From positions 43,694,406 to 43,758,405 of the forward strand of contig CP092877.1 of NCBI GenBank assembly GCA_030710605.1: a stretch of DNA of 64,000 nucleotides, read 5' to 3'. This stretch comes from Cordylochernes scorpioides. Lineage: Eukaryota; Arthropoda; Arachnida; Pseudoscorpiones; Chernetidae. A model generated the notes under the pieces. That model had not been told where the DNA came from. It saw only the letters and a program-made list of their open reading frames with translations, and made no database searches. Both the position numbers and the translations under genes were made by a program. Positions 7,283-63,715 of the stretch are shown in pieces (position 1 is the first letter of the stretch; each line of letters opens with the position of its first letter).

Positions 7283-7698
7283 ATGTTTGCAAGAAGTTTT
7301 AATAATATATTCAAAAAGTATGAAAAAATAAAAATTGCATGGAAACCATGTAATCCTATCTCTCAATATAGCAACAACCATAAGAACACTCACATACCAA
7401 AAAGAGCAGGTTTAATTTATGAAGTGAAATGTGAAAAATGTGACCAATGTTATGTAGGACAAACATCCAGAACTTTAAAAGAAAGAATGAAAAACCATGA
7501 ATATGCTCTGAAATGGGATAAAATTGAAAATTCTGCACTTTTAGAACATAGAAAAATCACAGGGCATAATAATTTTAACCTAAAAGAAACAAAGATACTA
7601 GATTATGAGAAAAATTACTATAAGAGACAATTTAAAGAAGCTTTTTTTATTCAAAAGAAATGTGCTACAATTAACAGAATGGAAGAAAGAGGAAATAT
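7283..7698 (+). pseudogene. Penelope-like GIY-YIG endonuclease domain
   Basis: An open frame of about 139 residues containing LIYEVKCEKCDQCYVGQTSR and then TLKERMKNH. This is the GIY-YIG nuclease signature preceded by the Cys-pair insertion typical of Penelope-like elements. It goes on through LLEHRKITGHNNF to NRMEERGN, where a SINE enters. The domain would nick DNA during insertion of the element. The N-terminal RT is absent and the last residues lie beyond the SINE, so this is a fragment. Confidence 0.88.
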
Positions 7699-7874
7699 AA
7701 GTCGGTGGACGAGTGGGTAACCCACTCAAATCCCGACAGTCATGAACCGGGATTGAATCCCGCGTTTAAATTTTGTTTAATATGTGAATAACCTTCACAT
7801 ATTATTCATTGTTCAATTATCATGAACTAGGTTGCTCTTGCTGAGCGGTACCTATTTATGTGAATTTGAACCAT
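7699..7874 (+). mobile_element. SINE-A, tRNA-derived, with 14-bp target-site duplication
   Basis: Flanked by GAAAGAGGAAATAT at 7685-7698 and 7875-7888. The head resembles a tRNA: GGTGGACGAGTGGGTAACCC (box A-like), then CCGGGATTGAATCCCG (box B-like). The 3' part ends ...GCGGTACCTATTTATGTGAA. The uninterrupted target is visible at 54745-54770. Confidence 0.85.
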
Positions 7875-10842: not shown

Positions 10843-11081
10843 TATCTATCTGTGCATGATGTGTTCTTTGTTTCTCATCTGTGACTTTGTTGTGAAAATA
10901 AAATAAGATGATGATGATAAATCTAATATCGTTGTAGTTGTTTCCAATGAAGAGTCTCAGATATCTCCATACATCTCTATCACAGCAGTTGCAATGTCCT
11001 CTATCTTGGGTGTGTAAAGTTCTGGGTCCATGTCAATTTTCTGCGAGACTGTGGCCATCGCTGGGCAAGAGAATATGTGGG

Positions 11082-11466
11082 AACTCCGCCGTTGCCGGTC
11101 CCAAGCCCGGATGAAAAAGGAGGAGGGGAAGCAGTAACAAGCTCACTAAAAAAATCTGGGCTCAGCTGGCCCGGCTGATAGTACCCTGTAAGGGCCCTTA
11201 ATCCAGGGATACAGGATAAGCAACGTTTGTACTCCATGTTAGGAGCCGCTGCACATGGCGTCTGTTCCTCATGTTAGAGGCGGCCATTTCTTTTGGAGCT
11301 AAGTCGGCCTGCCACTGAGTAGTGCTCCCAGTCTTAATGACAAAGGCAGACACATTCTACTTCACCCAGTCATGATGGTTGTCAACAGACACCATCAAAA
11401 CTCTCAAGGTTTACAAGCTTGACACCCTAATATGATTGAGTGGAGATAAGAAAGAAGAAGAAGAAT
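11082..11466 (+). mobile_element. bipartite LINE derivative (5' end fused to 3' end)
   Basis: Begins AACTCCGCCGTTGCCGGTCC, the common 5' terminus also seen at 22156 and 45940. It continues through the LINE 5' region to GATGGTTGTCA and then jumps directly to the last ~80 bp of the GAA-tailed LINE (CACCATCAAAACTCTC...AAGAAAGAAGAAG). The whole coding interior is absent. It is probably mobilised in trans. Confidence 0.75.
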
Positions 11467-22094: not shown

Positions 22095-22155
22095 TTTAAT
22101 AATAACAGAAGGTAAGACCAAGTCCAGATTAATAAATGGTATCTACCATTTTGGT

Positions 22156-22536
22156 AACTCCGCCTTTGCCGATCCCAAGCCCGAATGAAAAAGAGGAGGG
22201 GGAGCTTTAACAAGCTCACTAAAAAACCTGGGCTCAGCTGGCCCGGCTGATAGTATCCTGTAAGGGCTCCTAATCCAGGGATACAGGATGAGCAGCGTTT
22301 GTACTCCATGTCCCTCATGTCAGAGGCAGCCATTTCTTTTGGAGCTAAGTCGGCCTGCCACTGAGTAGTGCTCCCAGTCTTAATGACAAAGGAAGACTTA
22401 TTCTACTTCACCCAATCATGATGGTTGTCACTGTATTGACTCATCCATTGATGTGCTCTACTCATCCCCGACAGCCACCATCAAAAGTATCAAGCTTTAC
22501 AAGCTTGATACCCTAATAAGAAAGAAGAAGAAGAGA
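22156..22536 (+). mobile_element. bipartite LINE derivative
   Basis: The same 5' terminus (AACTCCGCCTTTGCCGATCC) and internal junction after GATGGTTGTCA as at 11082-11466, here with about 105 bp of LINE 3' end. Ends AAGAAAGAAGAAGAAG. It lies directly upstream of the first recognised DUF4200 exon. Confidence 0.78.
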
Positions 22537-33513: not shown

Positions 33514-33584
33514 TTGCTTTTGGTTCAGTGGTAGAATGCTCGCCTGCCACGCGGGCGCCCCGGGTTCGATTCCCGGCCGATGCA
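33514..33584 (+). pseudogene. tRNA-Gly(GCC) pseudogene with mismatched 5' acceptor strand
   Basis: D arm, anticodon arm (loop CTGCCAC, anticodon GCC at 33546-33548), T arm (CCGGG-TTCGATT-CCCGG) and 3' acceptor strand CCGATGC plus A are canonical for tRNA-Gly-GCC. Box A (TGGTTCAGTGGTAG) and box B (GGTTCGATTCC) are intact and a poly(T) Pol III terminator follows. The 5' strand is TTGCTTT instead of the expected complement, so the acceptor stem cannot form. It looks as if the gene was replaced upstream of position 8. Confidence 0.88.
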
Positions 33585-33821
33585 TTTTTTTTTTTTTTTT
33601 TTACAATTTTTAAAACTCATTTATAATATTAAAATATTTTAAAATACAATATAACGCGGCTGATGATTGTAAAACGAAAATTTCAATAATACCGCAAATG
33701 TTTCTTTTATACAAAAATCGAAATTTATCTCAAAGAGAAATAGCGACCATTTCTAACTTTTTTGAATGAAGTATGAGAGGGTGAAAATATGAAGAGTAAT
33801 GGCGAACGGAAAAATAAAAGT

Positions 33822-33895
33822 GTCCAGGGGCGGGAATCGAACCCACAACCTTCTGCTTACCGGGCAGGTGCCATGTCCGCTAGGCTACCCTGGAC
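33822..33895 (-). pseudogene. tRNA-like sequence, left arm
   Basis: GTCCAGGGTAGCCTAGCGGA ... CACCTGCCCGGTAAGCAG ... TGTGGGTTCGATTCCCGCCC and TGGACA. Acceptor GTCCAGG/CCTGGAC and the T arm pair well, and box A/B-like sequences are present. The anticodon loop CCGGTAA lacks U33 and the acceptor may be 8 bp, so it is a tRNA-derived element, not a functional tRNA. Confidence 0.75.
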
Positions 33896-34145
33896 ATATT
33901 TCTCCGTTCATAAATATTATATAAAGTAATTTTAAAATACAATATAACGCGGCTGATGATTGTAAAACGAAAATTGCAATTATACCGCGTTAGAAATGGT
34001 CGCTATTTCTCTTTGAGATAAATTTCGATTTTTGTATAAAAGAAACATTCGCGGTATAATTGCAATTTTCGTTTTACAATCATCAGCCGCGTTATATTGT
34101 ATTTTTTAAAATTACTTTATATAATATTTATGAACGGAGAAATAT

Positions 34146-34219
34146 GTCCAGGGTAGCCTAGTGGACATGGCACCTGCCCAGTAAGCAGAAGGTTGTGGGT
34201 TCGATTCCCGCCCCTGGAC
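34146..34219 (+). pseudogene. tRNA-like sequence, right arm
   Basis: Inverted partner of 33822-33895 with two differences (TAGTGG for TAGCGG; CCCAGTAAG for CCCGGTAAG). The downstream ACTTTTATTTTCCGTTCGCC body is SINE-like. Confidence 0.75.
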
Positions 34220-34623
34220 ACTTTTATTTTCCGTTCGCCATTACTCTTCATATTTTCACCCTCTCATACTTCATTCAAAAAAGTTAGAAATAGTCGCTAT
34301 TTCTCTTTGAGATAAATTTCGATTTTTGTATAAAAGAAACATTCGCGGTATTATTAAAATATATGTGCTTTTCCTGTCTATGTACAGATTTATGGTCTAT
34401 GTACACAAGTATACAAGTATGTATACAAGTTATTTTCAAATTGCGTTGCAAATTTGCCCTTTCGCTCGCAAGCAGCGCCTCTAGCGGTGAAGATGGGAGG
34501 TAATATCAGCTGACCTAATGGACATGTAAAACGTGTTTTAACAAGACATAGAGAAAAATCTGGAAAATATATTTTTTGGATTTTTAGTCAAGAAAATAAA
34601 TTGACAGGTTCTGGGAAAAAGTA

Positions 34624-38030: not shown

Positions 38031-38317
38031 ATACCAGCCTCTGACCTTTTTTATTATTTTATTATTATTATTTTTTTCACATATATATATTCAAAATGGT
38101 TCGGTCACTCCAACTCATATAAACAATACTTTTCATGCATCACACGGGTGAGGGGCTTACAAGGAGTTTGAATTCTTAGAGGAAGATAGGTGAACAGCCT
38201 CGTTGAAATACCGAAATATGTTTTAATAAATATTATTCATCTAAAATATGCACTTCTTTTAATGTTCTTAAAATGGATTGCTCAATTTTTTGACATATAT
38301 ATATTATACTAGCGGAC

Positions 38318-38901
38318 GTACCCGGCTTCGCCCGGGTTTTACCCGAGTAAAGGTTTGTCTAACGAATCTCTCGATAAAGTGAACATTTTTTTCCCGGTCC
38401 CTTGAAAAATACTCGATAAGTTGAATAAAATCAATATTAATTGGTCCCCTCGGTAATTGGAAGTTAAAGGAATAGTATCTTGCCTTGGAATTGTATCATT
38501 ATTCTTGTATGGATGTACCCGGCTTCGCCCGGGTTTTACCCGAATAAAGGTTTGTTTAACGAATCTCTCGATAAAGTGAACATTTTTTCCCGGTCCCTTG
38601 AAAAATACTCGATAAGTTGAATAAAATCAATATTAATTGGTTCCCTCGGTAATTGGAAGTTAAAGGAATAGTATCTTGCCTTGGAATTGTATCATTATTC
38701 TTGTATGGATGTACCCGGCTTTGCCCGGGTTTTACCCGAGTAAAGGTTTGTTTAACGAATCTCTCGATAAAGTGAACATTTTTTCTCCGGTCCCTTGAAA
38801 AATACTCGATAAGTTGAATAAAATCAATATTAATTGGTTCCCTCGGTAATTGGAAGTTAAAGGAATAGTATCTTGCCTTGGAATTGTATCATTATTCTTG
38901 T
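38318..38901 (-). repeat. three tandem Helitron 3' termini, unit 196-197 bp
   Basis: Units start at 38318, 38515 and 38711. Each contains GTACCCGGCTTCGCCCGGGT (third: GGCTTTGCCC) and ends ...TTGTATCATTATTCTTGT. Differences between units are few. Only the leftmost unit has the CTAG terminus. Confidence 0.92.
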
Positions 38902-45625: not shown

Positions 45626-45940
45626 TCTTCTTCTTCTTTCTTATCTTTATGACTGGGTGAAGTAGAATGTGTCTGCCTTTGTCATTAAGACTGGGAGCAC
45701 TACTCAGTAGCAGGCTGACTTAGCTCCAAAAGAAATGGCCGCCTCTGACCTGAGGAACAGACACCATGTTCAGCCGCTCCTAACAAGGAGTACAAACGCT
45801 GCTCATCCTGTATACCTGGATTAGGAGCCCTTACAAGGTACTATCAGCCGGGCCAGCTGAGCCCAGGTTTTTTAGTGAGCTTGTTACTGCTCCCCCTCCT
45901 CCTTTTTCATCCGGGCTTGGGACCGGCAAAAGCGGAGTTT
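45626..45940 (-). mobile_element. bipartite LINE derivative
   Basis: On the minus strand it starts AACTCCGCTTTTGCCGGTCC at 45940, runs through the LINE 5' region to CACCCAGTCAT, and joins the GATAAGAAAGAAGAAGAAGA tail. Only about 20 bp of the LINE 3' end remain. Confidence 0.75.
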
Positions 45941-46079
45941 GATCCTGTCTAAATTTTGTGAGCCCCTAAAAACTAAATATTGTTATGTCATACCCAGACA
46001 CTGTTCGTGTTCTTTGTCTAATCAGGATGCCACAAAGATACATACGTGAGTTTGAAGGGATGCAGCAAAAGTTATGGCT

Positions 46080-55925: not shown

Positions 55926-56185
55926 TCTTCTGAAACTTCGCCGTCGCCGCCCGTAGCTGGAACCTCTTCGTTGTCGCCCGCGCCTGGAACTACGTCGCCG
56001 GCGCCTGCACCAGGAACCTCTTCGCCGTTGCCGCCCGCGCCTGGAACCTCTTCGTCGTCGCCTGCACCAGGAACCTCTTCGCCGTCGCCGCCCGCGCCTG
56101 GAACCTCTTCGCCGCCCATAGCTGGAACCTCTTCGTCGTCGCCCGCGCCTAGAACTACGTCGCCGTCGCCCGTAGCTGAAACAAG
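55926..56185 (+). repeat. 30-bp minisatellite encoding Pro/Ser/Thr-Gly repeats (copy A)
   Basis: Unit close to GCCCGCGCCTGGAACCTCTT plus CGCCGTCGC, about 8 units. Plus-strand frame GTSSPSPPAPGTSSxSPAPG, ending PVAETREFFDVHLRPAPS. Very GC-rich against the AT-rich background. The minus-strand Arg-rich frame is a shadow. Confidence 0.85.
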
Positions 56186-59449: not shown

Positions 59450-60410
59450 TATTTATATATATGTGGTTATTTGTGAGAAGCGGTCGTGGGTTGAGTGGTA
59501 AGGATGCACAAGGGGGCAGTATCTAGGAGAAATCGTACTCGCAGAGGGAAAACAGGGTGGTGACTCTTGAAATGTCTATTGTTAGACATGTGGTTGACTA
59601 GAGGTTTGATCTGACCAGCCAATGTTCTCTTCCCTATCCTTATACTCTCTCTCTCTTCCACACAGATCATCTTTATTTAAATTTTTCTACAAGATACATT
59701 TCTATCGGAATTATGACAAATGTATAAATTTCGATGGTGTCTGATAAAAGTAACGAGGCTAGTTTTAGATTTACAGGTGTAATCTTCTAATTCAACCAAC
59801 TATAGTTCAACACTTACTGGAATTCAACCATCTTTTTTTTTTTATCTTAATCAGCCAATCTACTTTACCCAACTTTAATGCAAACAAATTTTAATCCCGT
59901 GTGGTATTTAACTAAAGAATTTTGATTGTAATTTCAGTTCTTACGTGACTTTTTGCAAATTTTCATAGCCTTGATTAGAGAATGCTCTGTATGTTGTCCC
60001 CAGGCCCCTCCAACAGTGCAATGTATATAGTGCTTGTTTATATTCCGCTTTATGCGTCCATCGGGGTTCAAAAATCATTCATTCTGGTTAGCAGCCCCGT
60101 AAATAAAGATATTTCCGTAGATCCAGATTACCAATTTCATCCGCATAGACGGCCAATTTAGCTGATGGCTTGATGAAGATGGGTAGATTTTTCAGGTGAA
60201 TATTGAAGAGAATAAAGCTAAGGATTCATTCTTAGGGTGATTCTTTTAAAAAGCAAACATTTTGTGAAATTAAGAAAAAGGCTTCTTCTTATCGAGCAAC
60301 TGAAAGTTGCTGATGGCTTGCGCCATCTATCGGAATAAATATCAACTATTCTCGTTGATTTTTAATTATTCCAGAGTTGGCCAAATACCCATTCTTGATT
60401 AATCAAGAAA

Positions 60411-60464
60411 AGCTAACCACGGACGCGTTTCGGGCTGTTGGCCCTCATCAGCGTGGTGCAAGCT
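60411..60464 (-). ncRNA. hammerhead ribozyme motif, unit 1
   Basis: On the minus strand: ACCACG (stem I), CTGATGAG, stem II GGC-CAACA-GCC, CGAAAC, a very short stem III (ACGCGT), GTC cleavage triplet, CGTGGT (stem I). An outer AGC/GCT pairing extends stem I around an internal loop. All core positions are present. Confidence 0.85.
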
Positions 60465-60750
60465 GTACCTCTTCGACCAAAAAATTGGTCATTAAGGCAT
60501 CCTGAAAAATCATTAAACGGGTAGTTAAGGCCAGAATTGCGTGAGAACGCTACACAATGTGAAAAAATAGTACAAATGTAATATTGTACTGGGATAAGGT
60601 GCATAAATTAAGAAAAAGGCTTCTTCTTATCGAGCAACTGAAAGTTGCTGATATGGCTTGCGCCATCTATCGGAATAAATATCAACTATTCTCGTTGATT
60701 TTTAATTATTCCAGAGTTGGCCAAATACCCATTCTTGATTAATCAAGAAA

Positions 60751-60804
60751 AGCTAACCACGGACGCGTTTCTGGCTGTTGGCCCTCATCAGCGTGGTGCA
60801 AGCT
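60751..60804 (-). ncRNA. hammerhead ribozyme motif, unit 2 (one stem II mutation)
   Basis: As unit 1, but the C before GAAAC is A (CCAGAAAC), breaking the base pair next to the core. Activity is probably reduced. Confidence 0.78.
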
Positions 60805-61088
60805 GTACCTCAACGACCAAAAAATTGGTCATTAAGGCATCCTGAAAAATCATGAAACGGGTAGTTAAGGCCAGAATTGCGTGAGAACGCTACACAATGT
60901 GAAAAAATAGTACAAATGTAATATTGTACTGGGATAAGGTGCATAAATTAAGAAAAAGGCTTCTTCTTATCGAGCAACTGAAAGTTGCTGATGGCTTGCG
61001 TCATCTATCGGAATAAATATCAACTATTCTCGTTGATTTCTAATTATTCCAGAGTTGTCCAAATAGCCATTCTTGATTAATCAAGAAA

Positions 61089-61142
61089 AGCTAACCACGG
61101 ACGCGTTTAGGGCTGTTGGCCCTCATCAGCGTGGTGCAAGCT
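61089..61142 (-). ncRNA. hammerhead ribozyme motif, unit 3 (core mutated)
   Basis: CGAAAC has become CTAAAC, so the invariant G12 is lost. Expected to be inactive. Confidence 0.75.
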
Positions 61143-61425
61143 GTACCTCAACGACCAAAAAATTGGTCATTAAGGCATCCTGAAAAATCATGAAACGGGT
61201 AGTTAAGGCCAGAATTGCGTGAGAACGCTACACAATGTGAAAAAATAGTACAAATGTAATATTGTACTGGGATAAGGTGCATAAATTAAGAAAAGGGTTC
61301 TTCTTATCGAGCAAATGAAAGTTGCTGATGGCTTGCGCCAACTATCGATATAAATATCAACTATTCTCGTTGATTTTTAATTATTCCAGAGTTGGCCAAA
61401 TACCCATTCTTGATTAATCAAGAAA

Positions 61426-61479
61426 AGCTAACCACGGACGCGTTTCGGGCTGTTGGCCCTCATCAGCGTGGTGCAAGCT
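61426..61479 (-). ncRNA. hammerhead ribozyme motif, unit 4
   Basis: Identical in the core to unit 1. The array turns around immediately after its outer stem (61479/61480). Confidence 0.84.
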
Positions 61480-61693
61480 ATTTATTCCGATAGATGGCGC
61501 AAGCCATCAGCAACTTTCAGTTGCTCGATAAGAAGAAGCCTTTTTCTTAATTTATGCACCTTATCCCAGTACAATATTACATTTGTACTATTTTTTCACA
61601 TTGTGTAGCGTTCTCACGCAATTCTGGCCTTAAATACCCGTTTCATGATTTTTCAGGATGCCTTAATGACCAATTTTTTGGTCGTTGAGGTAC

Positions 61694-61747
61694 AGCTTGC
61701 ACCACGCTGATGAGGGCCAACAGCCCGAAACGCGTCCGTGGTTAGCT
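61694..61747 (+). ncRNA. hammerhead ribozyme motif, inverted unit 5
   Basis: Plus strand ACCACGCTGATGAGGGCCAA...CCCGAAACGCGTCCGTGGT. Complete core; predicted cleavage after the C at 61736. Confidence 0.86.
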
Positions 61748-62009
61748 TTTCTTGATTAATCAAGAATGGGTATTTGGATAACTCTGGAATAATTAAAAAT
61801 CAACGAGAATAGTTGATATTTATTCCGATAGATGGCGCAAGCCATCAGCAACTTTCAGTTGCTCGATAAGAAGAAGCCTTTTTCTTAATTTATGCACCTT
61901 ATCCCAGTACAATATTACATTGTGTAGCGTTCTCACGCAATTCTGGCCTTTACCCGTTTCATGATTTTTCAGGATGCCTTAATGACCAATTTTTTGGTCG
62001 TTGAGGTAC

Positions 62010-62063
62010 AGCTTGCACCACGCTGATGAGGGCCAACAGCCCGAAACGCGTCCGTGGTTAGCT
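62010..62063 (+). ncRNA. hammerhead ribozyme motif, inverted unit 6
   Basis: Same sequence as unit 5 through the core and stem I. The unit around it has a deletion upstream (the CATTTGTACTATTTTTTCA stretch near 61920 is missing). Confidence 0.85.
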
Positions 62064-63429
62064 TTTCTTGATTAATCAAGAATGGGTATTTGGCCAACTC
62101 TGGAATAATTAAAAATCAACGAGAATAGTTTATATTTATTCCGATAGATGGCGCAAGCCATCAGCAACTTTCAGTTGCTCGATAAGAAGAAGCCTTTTTC
62201 TTAATTTATGCACCTTATCCCAGTACAATATTACATTTGTACTATTTTTTCACATTTTGTGAAATATTGTTATTAAAATTTACCTGTATGGTTTGATTTT
62301 GAATAGAAAGTTGTTGATCCAACCCAATATGTTTCCCAAGTTTTCTGAGTTTGAGGGAGTTCATTTTTCTAATCAGACCCTGTCAAATTTGTAGAGATCG
62401 ACAAAGGCTGCTATAACTTATTTTGAGTAATGGGGAAAATTATTCTGAATTTGGTGATCAATTTTATATAATAACTCCACTTTCAAGTCCGGATGAGAAT
62501 GGAGGAGTGAAAGCAGTAACCAACTCACAAAAAAAAAGATAAGTTCAGCTGGTCCGGTTGATGGTATCCTGCAAGGGCTCCTGATCCAGGAAAACGAGAG
62601 AAACAGTGCTTTACTCCATGTTAGGATCAGCTGCACATGAAATCTGTTCCTTATGACAGAATCAGCCATTTCATTTGGAATCTAAGAGATGACCTACTAC
62701 TGAGGAATGCTCCCAGTCTTAATGACTAGAGCAGACATTTTACATATCTCATTCATTATGGTTTTTGTGTTACATGAATATCATCAAATAACTTTCAACA
62801 GTACACTATTTGTTTCATATTGTTTCGAAATAAACATTGTGACAAACTAGTATTTTTTGTTGTTGTATATTTGTTAAGTCTATTACTACATTTGTGTATT
62901 CTTTTGGGTTTATTTGAATATTTTATAAGCCTATGTTTTCTCCTCTCATAACTCTTTATCCCACATCGAGGTTTGCCTTACTTGTTGAAAGGACAACAAT
63001 GGGCTTGTTATTAGTTAGAAGAAATGGTTGTTGTCTCCCCCAGAGTTCTCGGATGCTGATTCATCCTGGTATAGCTAGCAAGAAATCTGCCTCCATTCTA
63101 TAACTAAGCTCTTCGAAAACGTGCAAGAGGAAATGTGTGGGTTTTCTCTGTAGATATACAAGCCTCTTCGTTGATATGGGACTACTCATGTACGTGCATT
63201 GCATGAAATCAAGAAGCTCTTCGAAGTTCCTAGCCTGTGATATCGTCAACCTGGGATCTCTTTGTTGCCGAATGTAGCTGGAATCTAGGATCTATTTGTT
63301 GAATCTGGAGCAAAATAATTCTTCGACGTTGAAACCTGTGGCATCGTTTAGTCTGTGCCTAAGATCTCTTGGTCGTTTCACGTGTCTTGTCATAGCTGGA
63401 ACGATAGAATTCAGATATGTGGAAGTCTG

Positions 63430-63715
63430 CGTCTACGTATTCTGAGACCTCTTCGCCGTCGCCGCCCGCGCCAAGAAACTCATCGCCGTCGCCGCCCGTA
63501 GCTGGACCCTCTTCGCCGTCGCCGCCCGCGCCTGGTACCTCTTCGCCTTCGCCGCCCGTAGCTGGAACCTCTTCGCCGTCGTCACCCGCGCCAAGAACCT
63601 CTTCGCCGTCGTCGCCCGCGCCTGGAACCTTTTCGCCGTCGCCGCCCGCGCCTGGAACCTCTTCGCCGTCGCCTGCCTCAGGAACCTCTTCGACGTCGCC
63701 CGTAGCTGAAACAAG
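63430..63715 (+). repeat. 30-bp minisatellite encoding Pro/Ser/Thr repeats (copy B)
   Basis: About 9-10 units with plus-strand frame PRNSSPSPPVAGPSSPSPPA..., ending VAETREFFDVHLRSAPSQ. The frame continues open to 63953, through FSVLSIKVCGFYFTVVETSY. It differs from copy A in unit number. Confidence 0.85.

What the first reader, a model, noticed from the sequence alone, without database searches (positions are those of the whole stretch)
60271..62253. Inverted array of ~338-bp units, each with a hammerhead ribozyme, inserted with a 12-bp target duplication
Seen: 3.6 direct and about 2.3 inverted units, target duplication ATTTTGTGAAAT, and in each unit CTGATGAG, a short stem II, CGAAAC, GTC and a matching stem I. 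Known: hammerheads occur in Penelope-like elements, in ~300-bp satellites of newts, schistosomes and cave crickets, and in retrozymes that circulate as RNA circles. Inference: this is a retrozyme-like family. Unusually, it is laid down as an inverted (foldback) array in one insertion, whereas known satellites are head to tail.
Basis: partly seen in the sequence, partly recalled or inferred. Interest (0 to 1): 0.92.

Follow-up and report, generated by a model that had tools for sequence, protein, structure and literature searches.

The report
Foldback insertions of a ribozyme retroelement
A short self-cutting RNA parasite in a pseudoscorpion genome has been copied in as a two-armed mirror-image insertion whose arms start at two neighbouring points on the RNA, as in the Penelope-type retrotransposons of the same genome, which points to how such parasites move.

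Summary
The array is real: 3.6 direct units of ~338 bp (60267-61479), ~2.3 inverted units (61479-62260), flanks sharing 14 bp. Six type I hammerheads, four with intact core and stem II; all score below Rfam's gathering score (18.8-28.3 bits against 52) but E is 0.0002-0.23 on the array alone. The host is Cordylochernes scorpioides (pseudoscorpion). Its genome holds 22,735 copies of this hammerhead at up to 3 mismatches (control 0).

The foldback is this family's usual form, not an oddity. Of 48 independent loci, a script two-armed, 29 of 29 with hammerhead-sense strands pointing outward. In 24 one arm ends near unit position 157 (A) and the other near 205 (B); 1 scores B+B, 4 have one unassigned end. 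Inner junctions are independent. TSDs of 10 bp or more: 22 of 29 (null 106 of 600).

The genome's abundant Penelope-like element shows the same outward foldback with two adjacent 3' ends (5 two-armed copies examined).

Best reading: a non-LTR retrozyme inserted by Penelope-type machinery that starts reverse transcription on both target strands, one at each of two adjacent RNA sites. RNA circles, ribozyme activity and the helper's identity are not shown.

The parts
60257..60270 (.). left target-site duplication ACATTTTGTGAAAT (last 4 bases also fit the unit)
   Evidence: sequence
60267..61479 (-). left arm, 1213 bp, 3.6 units; hammerhead-sense strand is minus; outer 3' end at unit position ~157 (site A)
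61479..61480 (.). inversion junction; inner unit positions 298 (left arm) and 81 (right arm), 1-base overlap
61479..62260 (+). right arm, 782 bp, ~2.3 units; hammerhead-sense strand is plus; outer 3' end at unit position ~205 (site B; the call's end runs into the TSD)
62252..62265 (.). right target-site duplication ACATTTTGTGAAAT (first ~5 bases also fit the unit)
60402..60467 (-). hammerhead 1, full motif (HH9 26.5 bits)
60742..60807 (-). hammerhead 2, stem II closing pair lost (18.8 bits)
61080..61145 (-). hammerhead 3, core G of GAAA changed (23.0 bits)
61414..61485 (-). hammerhead 4, full motif (28.3 bits)
61691..61756 (+). hammerhead 5, full motif (26.5 bits)
62007..62072 (+). hammerhead 6, full motif (26.5 bits)
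62207..62256 (+). stretch between sites A (~62207) and B (~62255) in the last right-arm unit, with the hairpin GTACAA...TTGTAC (62223-62242); the putative 'tail' between two reverse-transcription start sites
   Evidence: sites; weak predicted hairpin (no control)

Best explanation
It is one insertion of a small non-autonomous retroelement of the non-LTR retrozyme kind, made by target-primed reverse transcription that was started on both strands of a staggered cut. Proposed steps: (1) a transcript with hammerheads is made and, inferred, cut to unit length and closed to a circle; (2) inferred, a Penelope-type reverse transcriptase/GIY-YIG endonuclease, probably as a dimer, binds the RNA, cuts AT-rich DNA on both strands about 10-15 bp apart; (3) each free 3' end primes one cDNA inside the RNA, one at site A (unit ~157) and the other at site B (unit ~205); (4) each cDNA runs a variable distance, sometimes several times round the unit; (5) the two cDNA ends are joined with little or no microhomology, giving a 3'-out foldback flanked by a TSD. 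Shown by sequence: outward polarity, paired A and B ends, independent inner junctions, TSDs, multi-unit arms, sharing of variants between the two arms, and the same geometry in the genome's Penelope-like element. Inferred: RNA circle, ribozyme activity, dimer, and that a Penelope-like element is the helper.
For: Polarity: 29 of 29 script-called two-armed loci have the minus arm left and plus arm right, i.e. hammerhead-sense outward (p 3.7e-9). Ends: 24 A+B, 1 B+B, 4 with one end unassigned (24 against 1, p 1.5e-6), while single-armed loci use A (12) or B (6) (1 unassigned). TSD >=10 bp in 22 of 29, 13 of 29 not simple repeats; mismatched-locus null 106 and 26 of 600. Inner positions independent: circular distance fits uniform, KS p 0.94, n 28; 19 of 28 junctions have 0-8 bp overlap, 8 a gap of 1-10. 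Opposite arms of a locus share variants: 192 of 674 against 2966 of 56091 between loci; for variants in <=3 loci 49 of 435 (my sum of the printed rows) against 127 of 32928. Multi-unit arms: 35 of 66 longer than 338 bp, 5 longer than 676; one single arm of 1911 bp. Helper: GIY-YIG Penelope-like copies give 33,477 first-look candidates (150 scored), with 22 close minus/plus pairs and 1 plus/minus by my eye count of the 150 rows; their 3' ends fall in two clusters 30 nt apart (27 and 19 of 65 alignment ends); 5 two-armed copies with both ends in hand are all 3'-out with one end in or near each cluster, 4 of 5 with a TSD of 13-18 bp. Published: the Anolis Penelope-like protein cuts and extends both strands, prefers ATT/AT-rich DNA and starts at two adjacent internal RNA sites (PMC11167929, about half of text read).
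Against: No RNA, protein or activity data. No primary-sequence similarity between the start region of the retrozyme and that of the abundant Penelope-like element (score 22, reached by 351 of 500 shuffles), so that element may not be the helper. 19 of 48 loci are single-armed by script, so two-armed insertion is not obligatory. In the window itself the arms share only 1 of 110 rare variants. In the published in vitro work the start site did not differ between strands, so the A+B pairing is not predicted by it. 7 of 29 two-armed loci lack a TSD >=10 bp. One locus with plus-then-minus order exists (L096), a three-arm composite. Many TSDs lie in TA repeats.
Confidence: 0.72

Rival explanations
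1. Twin priming by a LINE (L1/jockey type) reverse transcriptase in trans: one nick primes normally, the second strand's end primes internally, giving inverted arms with a TSD. (Twin priming in L1 is recalled, not looked up here.)
For: Inverted arms, TSD, microhomology or blunt inner junction fit. LINE-type endonuclease/reverse transcriptase genes are present in the window.
Against: LINE twin priming gives one fixed 3' end and a second, variable internal start; here both outer ends are fixed at two adjacent sites in 24 of 29. The same two-end pattern is seen in the genome's GIY-YIG element.
Confidence: 0.12
2. Self-priming: a cDNA end folds back on itself or a palindrome and copies itself, as proposed for Penelope elements of Adineta vaga with an antisense template.
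For: Proposed in print for head-to-head Penelope copies with palindromes at the junction (PMC3846280 Discussion). 5 of 28 junctions here have inner positions within 17 nt.
Against: Inner positions of the two arms are unrelated overall (KS p 0.94, n 28), and the two outer ends differ (A and B), which self-copying of one cDNA would not give.
Confidence: 0.08
3. DNA-level rearrangement of an ordinary tandem satellite (inverted duplication, template switching in replication, or assembly error).
For: Segmental duplicates of single loci do occur (L017/L019/L020/L022, L081-L083, L091/L092).
Against: Predicts both polarities, random ends and no TSD; observed 29 of 29 one polarity, fixed ends, TSDs in 22 of 29 at scattered chromosomal places.
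Confidence: 0.03
4. The hammerhead is a passenger: the repeat is a plain pseudo-LTR fragment or SINE-like derivative of a Penelope-like element, and no ribozyme cutting or RNA circle is involved.
For: In the Anolis system hammerhead mutants still inserted in vitro (PMC11167929). No RNA data here. Penelope elements also occur in tandem.
Against: The hammerhead blocks are among the least diverged of the unit (1.2-1.3% non-consensus against 1.6-4.8%) and 64 of 73 copies keep the core. Arms run through the cleavage site, up to 5.6 units. No sequence similarity to the Penelope-like 3' region was found.
Confidence: 0.2

Closest known systems
Non-LTR retrozymes of animals (Cervera and de la Pena 2020, PMC7229834)
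   Same: Type I hammerhead, unit of ~170-400 nt in multimers, low GC, TSD longer than the 4 bp of plant retrozymes, co-existing Penelope-like elements; helix III of one pair with a palindromic tetraloop as in the axolotl Amex1 motif (here A-CGCG-U).
   Different: Described as tandem repeats; in the passages and sections I read no inverted, two-armed form, no fixed pair of end points and no pseudoscorpion is described. Circular RNA shown there, not here.
Penelope-like elements, canonical GIY-YIG type (Adineta vaga, PMC3846280; Anolis PAc, PMC11167929)
   Same: Inverted head-to-head copies with 8-10 bp TSDs, an optional 30-40 bp 'tail' on one side, two adjacent reverse-transcription starts, cutting and extension of both strands, AT-rich targets, hammerhead motif.
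   Different: This repeat has no reading frame and no detected similarity to the genome's Penelope-like 3' region. The strict pairing of the two ends within one insertion is not stated in what I read.
Hammerhead satellites (newt, schistosome W-elements PMC8490949, cave cricket pDo500)
   Same: ~300-bp repeat units with a type I hammerhead, transcribed in the published cases.
   Different: Here dispersed short insertions with TSDs, mostly foldback, rather than long head-to-tail arrays.
LINE-1 twin priming (recalled)
   Same: Inverted arms with TSD from two primings on one RNA.
   Different: Here both outer ends are fixed and differ.

Membership tests
animal non-LTR retrozyme | type I hammerhead in each unit | tested here: met
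   Motif, stems and core present; 4 of 6 in the window and 64 of 73 genomic copies with intact core; Rfam HH9 E 0.0002-0.23 on the array. Below gathering score.
animal non-LTR retrozyme | 150-450 bp unit in multimers without LTR, PBS or PPT | tested here: met
   Unit 337-340 bp. Absence of PBS/PPT not searched for separately.
animal non-LTR retrozyme | TSD longer than 4 bp | tested here: met
   14 bp in the window; >=10 bp in 22 of 29 two-armed loci.
animal non-LTR retrozyme | dispersed high copy number | tested here: met
   22,735 ribozyme copies at <=3 mismatches, control 0.
animal non-LTR retrozyme | self-cleavage and circular RNA in tissues | not testable with these tools
   No RNA reads or bench assay available.
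Penelope-like insertion signature | 3'-out (head-to-head) inverted copies with TSD | tested here: met
   29 of 29 two-armed loci 3'-out; TSD as above.
Penelope-like insertion signature | two adjacent 3' start sites ('tail' on one side) | tested here: met
   24 of 29 A+B, about 46-48 nt apart; in the resident element 30 nt apart.
Penelope-like element (as a member) | reverse transcriptase plus GIY-YIG reading frame | tested here: not met
   No ORF of 100 aa or more lies within 60267-62260.
Penelope-like element (as a derivative) | sequence similarity to an autonomous element of the same genome | tested here: not met
   Against one abundant family only: no similarity of start regions beyond shuffles; the unit hits in 30 loci are neighbouring insertions or weak matches. 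Other Penelope families of this genome not tested.
head-to-tail satellite DNA | long uninterrupted tandem arrays | tested here: not met
   In 48 loci the longest arm seen is 1911 bp. Large arrays elsewhere in the genome were not searched for.

The most novel reading that the evidence does not exclude
Animal retrozymes are to Penelope-like elements what SINEs are to LINEs, and a Penelope-type complete insertion is intrinsically two-ended: a protein dimer seizes one small circular hammerhead RNA and primes two cDNAs from the two cut strands, one at each side of a single start hairpin, so each full insertion is an asymmetric 3'-out foldback with one A and one B end. This would explain both the long-standing head-to-head structures and the 'tail on one side' of Penelope elements without self-priming or an antisense template.
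Probability: 0.5. Interest if true: 0.85.

Novelty: new variant of a known kind. Interest (0 to 1): 0.72.

Why it matters
How animal retrozymes get back into DNA has been a hypothesis: the 2020 description names Penelope-like elements only as a strong candidate (PMC7229834 Discussion). How Penelope-like elements make head-to-head copies is stated as open in 2013, and the later steps as unvalidated in 2024. Here thousands of small, sequence-simple copies in one genome record both ends of each event. They carry a two-start-site, both-strands signature shared with the resident Penelope-like element, and so make the mechanism testable with one RNA of about 340 nt.

Tried and rejected
Rejected: that the foldback is unusual within its family. 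Rejected for most loci: self-priming at palindromes. Considered and dropped: that outer ends mark Pol III terminators (T-runs stand near both A and B); no promoter search was done. Led nowhere: hammerhead-like strings CTGATGA...CGAAAA at 33660, 33953 (+) and 34086 (-) near tRNA genes; I could not fit stem III or a cleavage site by eye and did not pursue them. Rfam does not see the short hammerhead-like motif of the Penelope-like element (one locus); I name it from the core pattern CTGANGA...GAAAC-GTC, which is recalled. Pfam gave no reverse transcriptase or GIY-YIG match for the 476-aa frame of L055, although the 145-aa frame in the window matches GIY-YIG (24.1 bits); its nature rests on relatives with PF00078 and PF01541 (e.g. 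P0128) and a weak sub-cutoff NCBIfam match. The search for an empty insertion site did not complete. Papers not held: Cervera 2014, Craig 2021.

Rows dropped or set by hand: three segmental duplicates (L017, L019, L022) dropped before counting; L028, L033, L040, L045 replaced by longer fetches L050, L047-L049 of the same places; L014's first, separate plus arm left out and L021's two arms (273 bp apart) joined by hand; L082, L083 (= L081) and L092 (= L091) counted once and L096, picked because its order was odd, kept out of the 48. By eye only: L011, scored B+B, has a ~13-base A-end stub outside its left arm; L030, scored single-armed, has a short second arm ending at B. With these the tally would be 30 two-armed, 26 A+B, 0 same-end, 4 with an unassigned end. 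The first 36 loci come from the best 40 of 1808 candidates, so near-complete units are favoured; the 12 come from 15 consecutive places on one contig with an exact hammerhead (L015's place left out).
Full report
What is there. TRF places 3.6 direct copies of a 338-bp unit at 60267-61479 and 2.0 copies of a 316-bp unit at 61598-62241. Alignment to the unit extends the inverted part to 61479-62260. The two parts are reverse complements at 98% over up to 386 nt. The flanks share ACATTTTGTGAAAT, 14 bp, at 60257-60270 and 62252-62265. Four to five bases at either side also fit the unit, so the exact cut is not fixed.

Hammerheads. Six sites carry CTGATGA. The left four are on the minus strand and the right two on the plus strand. 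Read 5' to 3': CCACG, CTGATGA, GGGC CAACA GCCC, GAAA, CGCG, TC, then CGTGG, that is stem I, core, stem II with loop, core, a one-pair helix III with a palindromic CGCG loop, and the cut site. Helix III like this is described for the axolotl Amex1 motif (PMC7229834 passages). Four sites are intact; one has lost the stem II closing pair and one has a changed core G. Rfam at gathering score finds none. Scanned alone, the array gives six HH9 matches, 28.3, 26.5 (three), 23.0 and 18.8 bits, E 0.0002-0.23. In a scan of the whole window at E<=5 two of the six appear and no hammerhead appears elsewhere.

Host and copy number. A protein of the window matches Cordylochernes scorpioides records at up to 97% over 99% (98% over shorter parts), on contigs whose lengths equal those of this genome, e.g. 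90421875, 208110490 and 180100396. The 39-nt ribozyme occurs 22,735 times at <=3 mismatches; the reversed control occurs 0 times.

Structure of the family. A search with one unit gave 110 matches from 40 scored of 1808 candidates. I grouped them into 39 loci and fetched the other 38. Three are segmental duplicates, leaving 36. A script of these two-armed: minus arm left and plus arm right in 24 of 24; ends A+B in 20, B+B in 1, one unassigned in 3. Twelve are single-armed: 9 end at A, 2 at B, 1 unassigned. A second sample of 15 consecutive exact-hammerhead places on contig 1 (L015's place left out) gave 12 independent loci. Five are two-armed, all minus/plus, 4 A+B and 1 with an unassigned end. 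Seven are single-armed, 3 at A and 4 at B. Together 29 of 48 are two-armed, 29 of 29 outward, 24 A+B against 1 same-end (p 1.5e-6). By eye L011 (the B+B case) has a short outer A stub and L030 has a short second arm. Among the 100 exact places listed, all on contig 1, I count 7 minus/plus clusters and 1 plus/minus within 1.3 kb; the latter, fetched as L096, is a three-arm composite.

A and B. With u1 the first base after the cleavage site, A is near u152-159 (after GCCTTTTTCTTAATTT) and B near u199-207 (after CTATTTTTTCACATT). They bracket a weak predicted stem with the hairpin GTACAA...TTGTAC (no control was run). The fold of the whole unit as a circle is -102 kcal/mol, also without control.

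TSDs and junctions. A TSD score of 10 or more is reached in 22 of 29 two-armed loci, 13 of 29 outside simple repeats, against 106 and 26 of 600 pairs of ends from different loci. Targets are AT-rich. The inner positions of the two arms are unrelated (KS p 0.94, n 28); 19 of 28 junctions overlap by 0-8 bp, 8 have a 1-10 bp gap, 1 a longer gap. Single arms can also carry TSDs: L010 8 bp, L085 10, L088 13, L094 10.

One template? Opposite arms of one locus share 192 of 674 variants against 2966 of 56091 between loci. For variants found in at most 3 loci the figures are 49 of 435 (summed by me from the printed rows) and 127 of 32928. This fits one RNA, or sibling RNAs, for both arms; gene conversion between arms would also do it. 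The window's own arms share only 1 of 110. Arms longer than a unit are common (35 of 66; 5 of 66 above 676 bp) and a single arm of 1911 bp has five exact hammerheads 338 bp apart. That needs a circular or multimeric template; I cannot tell which.

Ribozyme conservation. Of 73 spanned hammerheads in the 36 loci, 64 keep the core; 31 of 36 loci have at least one intact copy. The blocks around the ribozyme are among the least diverged (1.2-1.3% non-consensus against 1.6-4.8%). The sample favours copies close to the query, so this is a hint of selection, not a test.

Resident Penelope-like element. The window has a GIY-YIG frame at 7283-7720 (24.1 bits, cut-off 22.6). In the genome it gives 33,477 first-look candidates, 150 scored. 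In those 150 rows I count by eye 22 minus/plus pairs closer than 5 kb and 1 plus/minus. In 30 fetched loci the 3' ends of alignments fall into two clusters, 680-689 (27) and 712-717 (19), of 65 ends. Five loci had both ends of a two-armed copy in hand. All are 3'-out, with one end in or near each cluster; TSDs are 16, 13, none, 18 and 14 bp. For L055, the reference itself, I set the right end at 714; L079's right end lies at 671, short of its cluster. A motif CTGANGA...GAAACGTC is present in 27 of 30 loci, upstream of these ends (the core pattern is recalled). Relatives of the L055 frame carry reverse transcriptase and GIY-YIG domains, although Pfam on the frame itself found neither. The start regions of this element and of the retrozyme share no detectable sequence.

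Reading. The paired, fixed, adjacent ends and the outward polarity are what is expected if one Penelope-type complex cuts both strands and primes one cDNA from each, at the two start sites. The Anolis protein does cut and extend both strands and starts at two adjacent internal sites (PMC11167929, first two of four parts and passages read). That paper reports no strand difference in start site, so the one-A-one-B rule goes beyond it. The Adineta paper reports inverted pLTRs with 8-10 bp TSDs and a tail on one of them, and proposes self-priming on an antisense template while leaving the matter open (PMC3846280). The independent inner junctions here speak against self-priming for most loci.

Literature. 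The 2020 retrozyme paper (abstract, passages, sections 13 and 17) describes tandem units, TSDs longer than 4 bp and Penelope-like elements as the likely helper; I saw no inverted form there. Passages only were seen of PMC7761336, PMC8490949, PMC6431247, PMC12910113, PMC11722881 and PMC8969392. I found no report of two-armed retrozyme insertions or of a pseudoscorpion retrozyme in searches of this open-access library, which lacks most subscription journals; (hammerhead ribozyme, head-to-head, retrotransposon) returned 0 papers.

Verdict. The foldback is not an anomaly but the family's main form, and it carries a Penelope-type signature. Cleavage, circles and the helper remain to be shown.

Noticed in passing
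window 45890-45944 (-), 11077-11131 (+), 22151-22204 (+): Twister-P1-like ribozymes (44.3, 40.6, 33.5 bits; gathering 67.2) at the start of an interspersed repeat: similarity between the copies begins about at the ribozyme, as if it marked a retroelement's 5' end.
   Followed up: partly
window 7283-7720 and 30 genomic loci L051-L080: GIY-YIG fragment of a very abundant Penelope-like element whose copies are often 3'-out foldbacks with two 3'-end clusters 30 nt apart.
   Followed up: yes
window 33515-34221: Three tRNA genes (Gly, Thr, Thr) amid inverted repeats with the string CTGATGATTGTAAAACGAAAATT three times; hammerhead-like at first sight, no full motif found by eye.
   Followed up: partly
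window 61917 and around: The middle unit of the right arm lacks about 20 nt between two ACATT repeats, which removes half of the hairpin between sites A and B.
   Followed up: no
window 55930-56182 and 63447-63702: GC-rich 27-60 bp tandem repeats in two related stretches flanking the array region.
   Followed up: no
window 38314-38901 and 2254-2450: Tandem arrays of 196 bp x 3.0 and 31 bp x 6.4.
   Followed up: no
L061: Retrozyme copies (98% identity) lie beside a Penelope-like copy within 3.4 kb, perhaps shared target preference.
   Followed up: no
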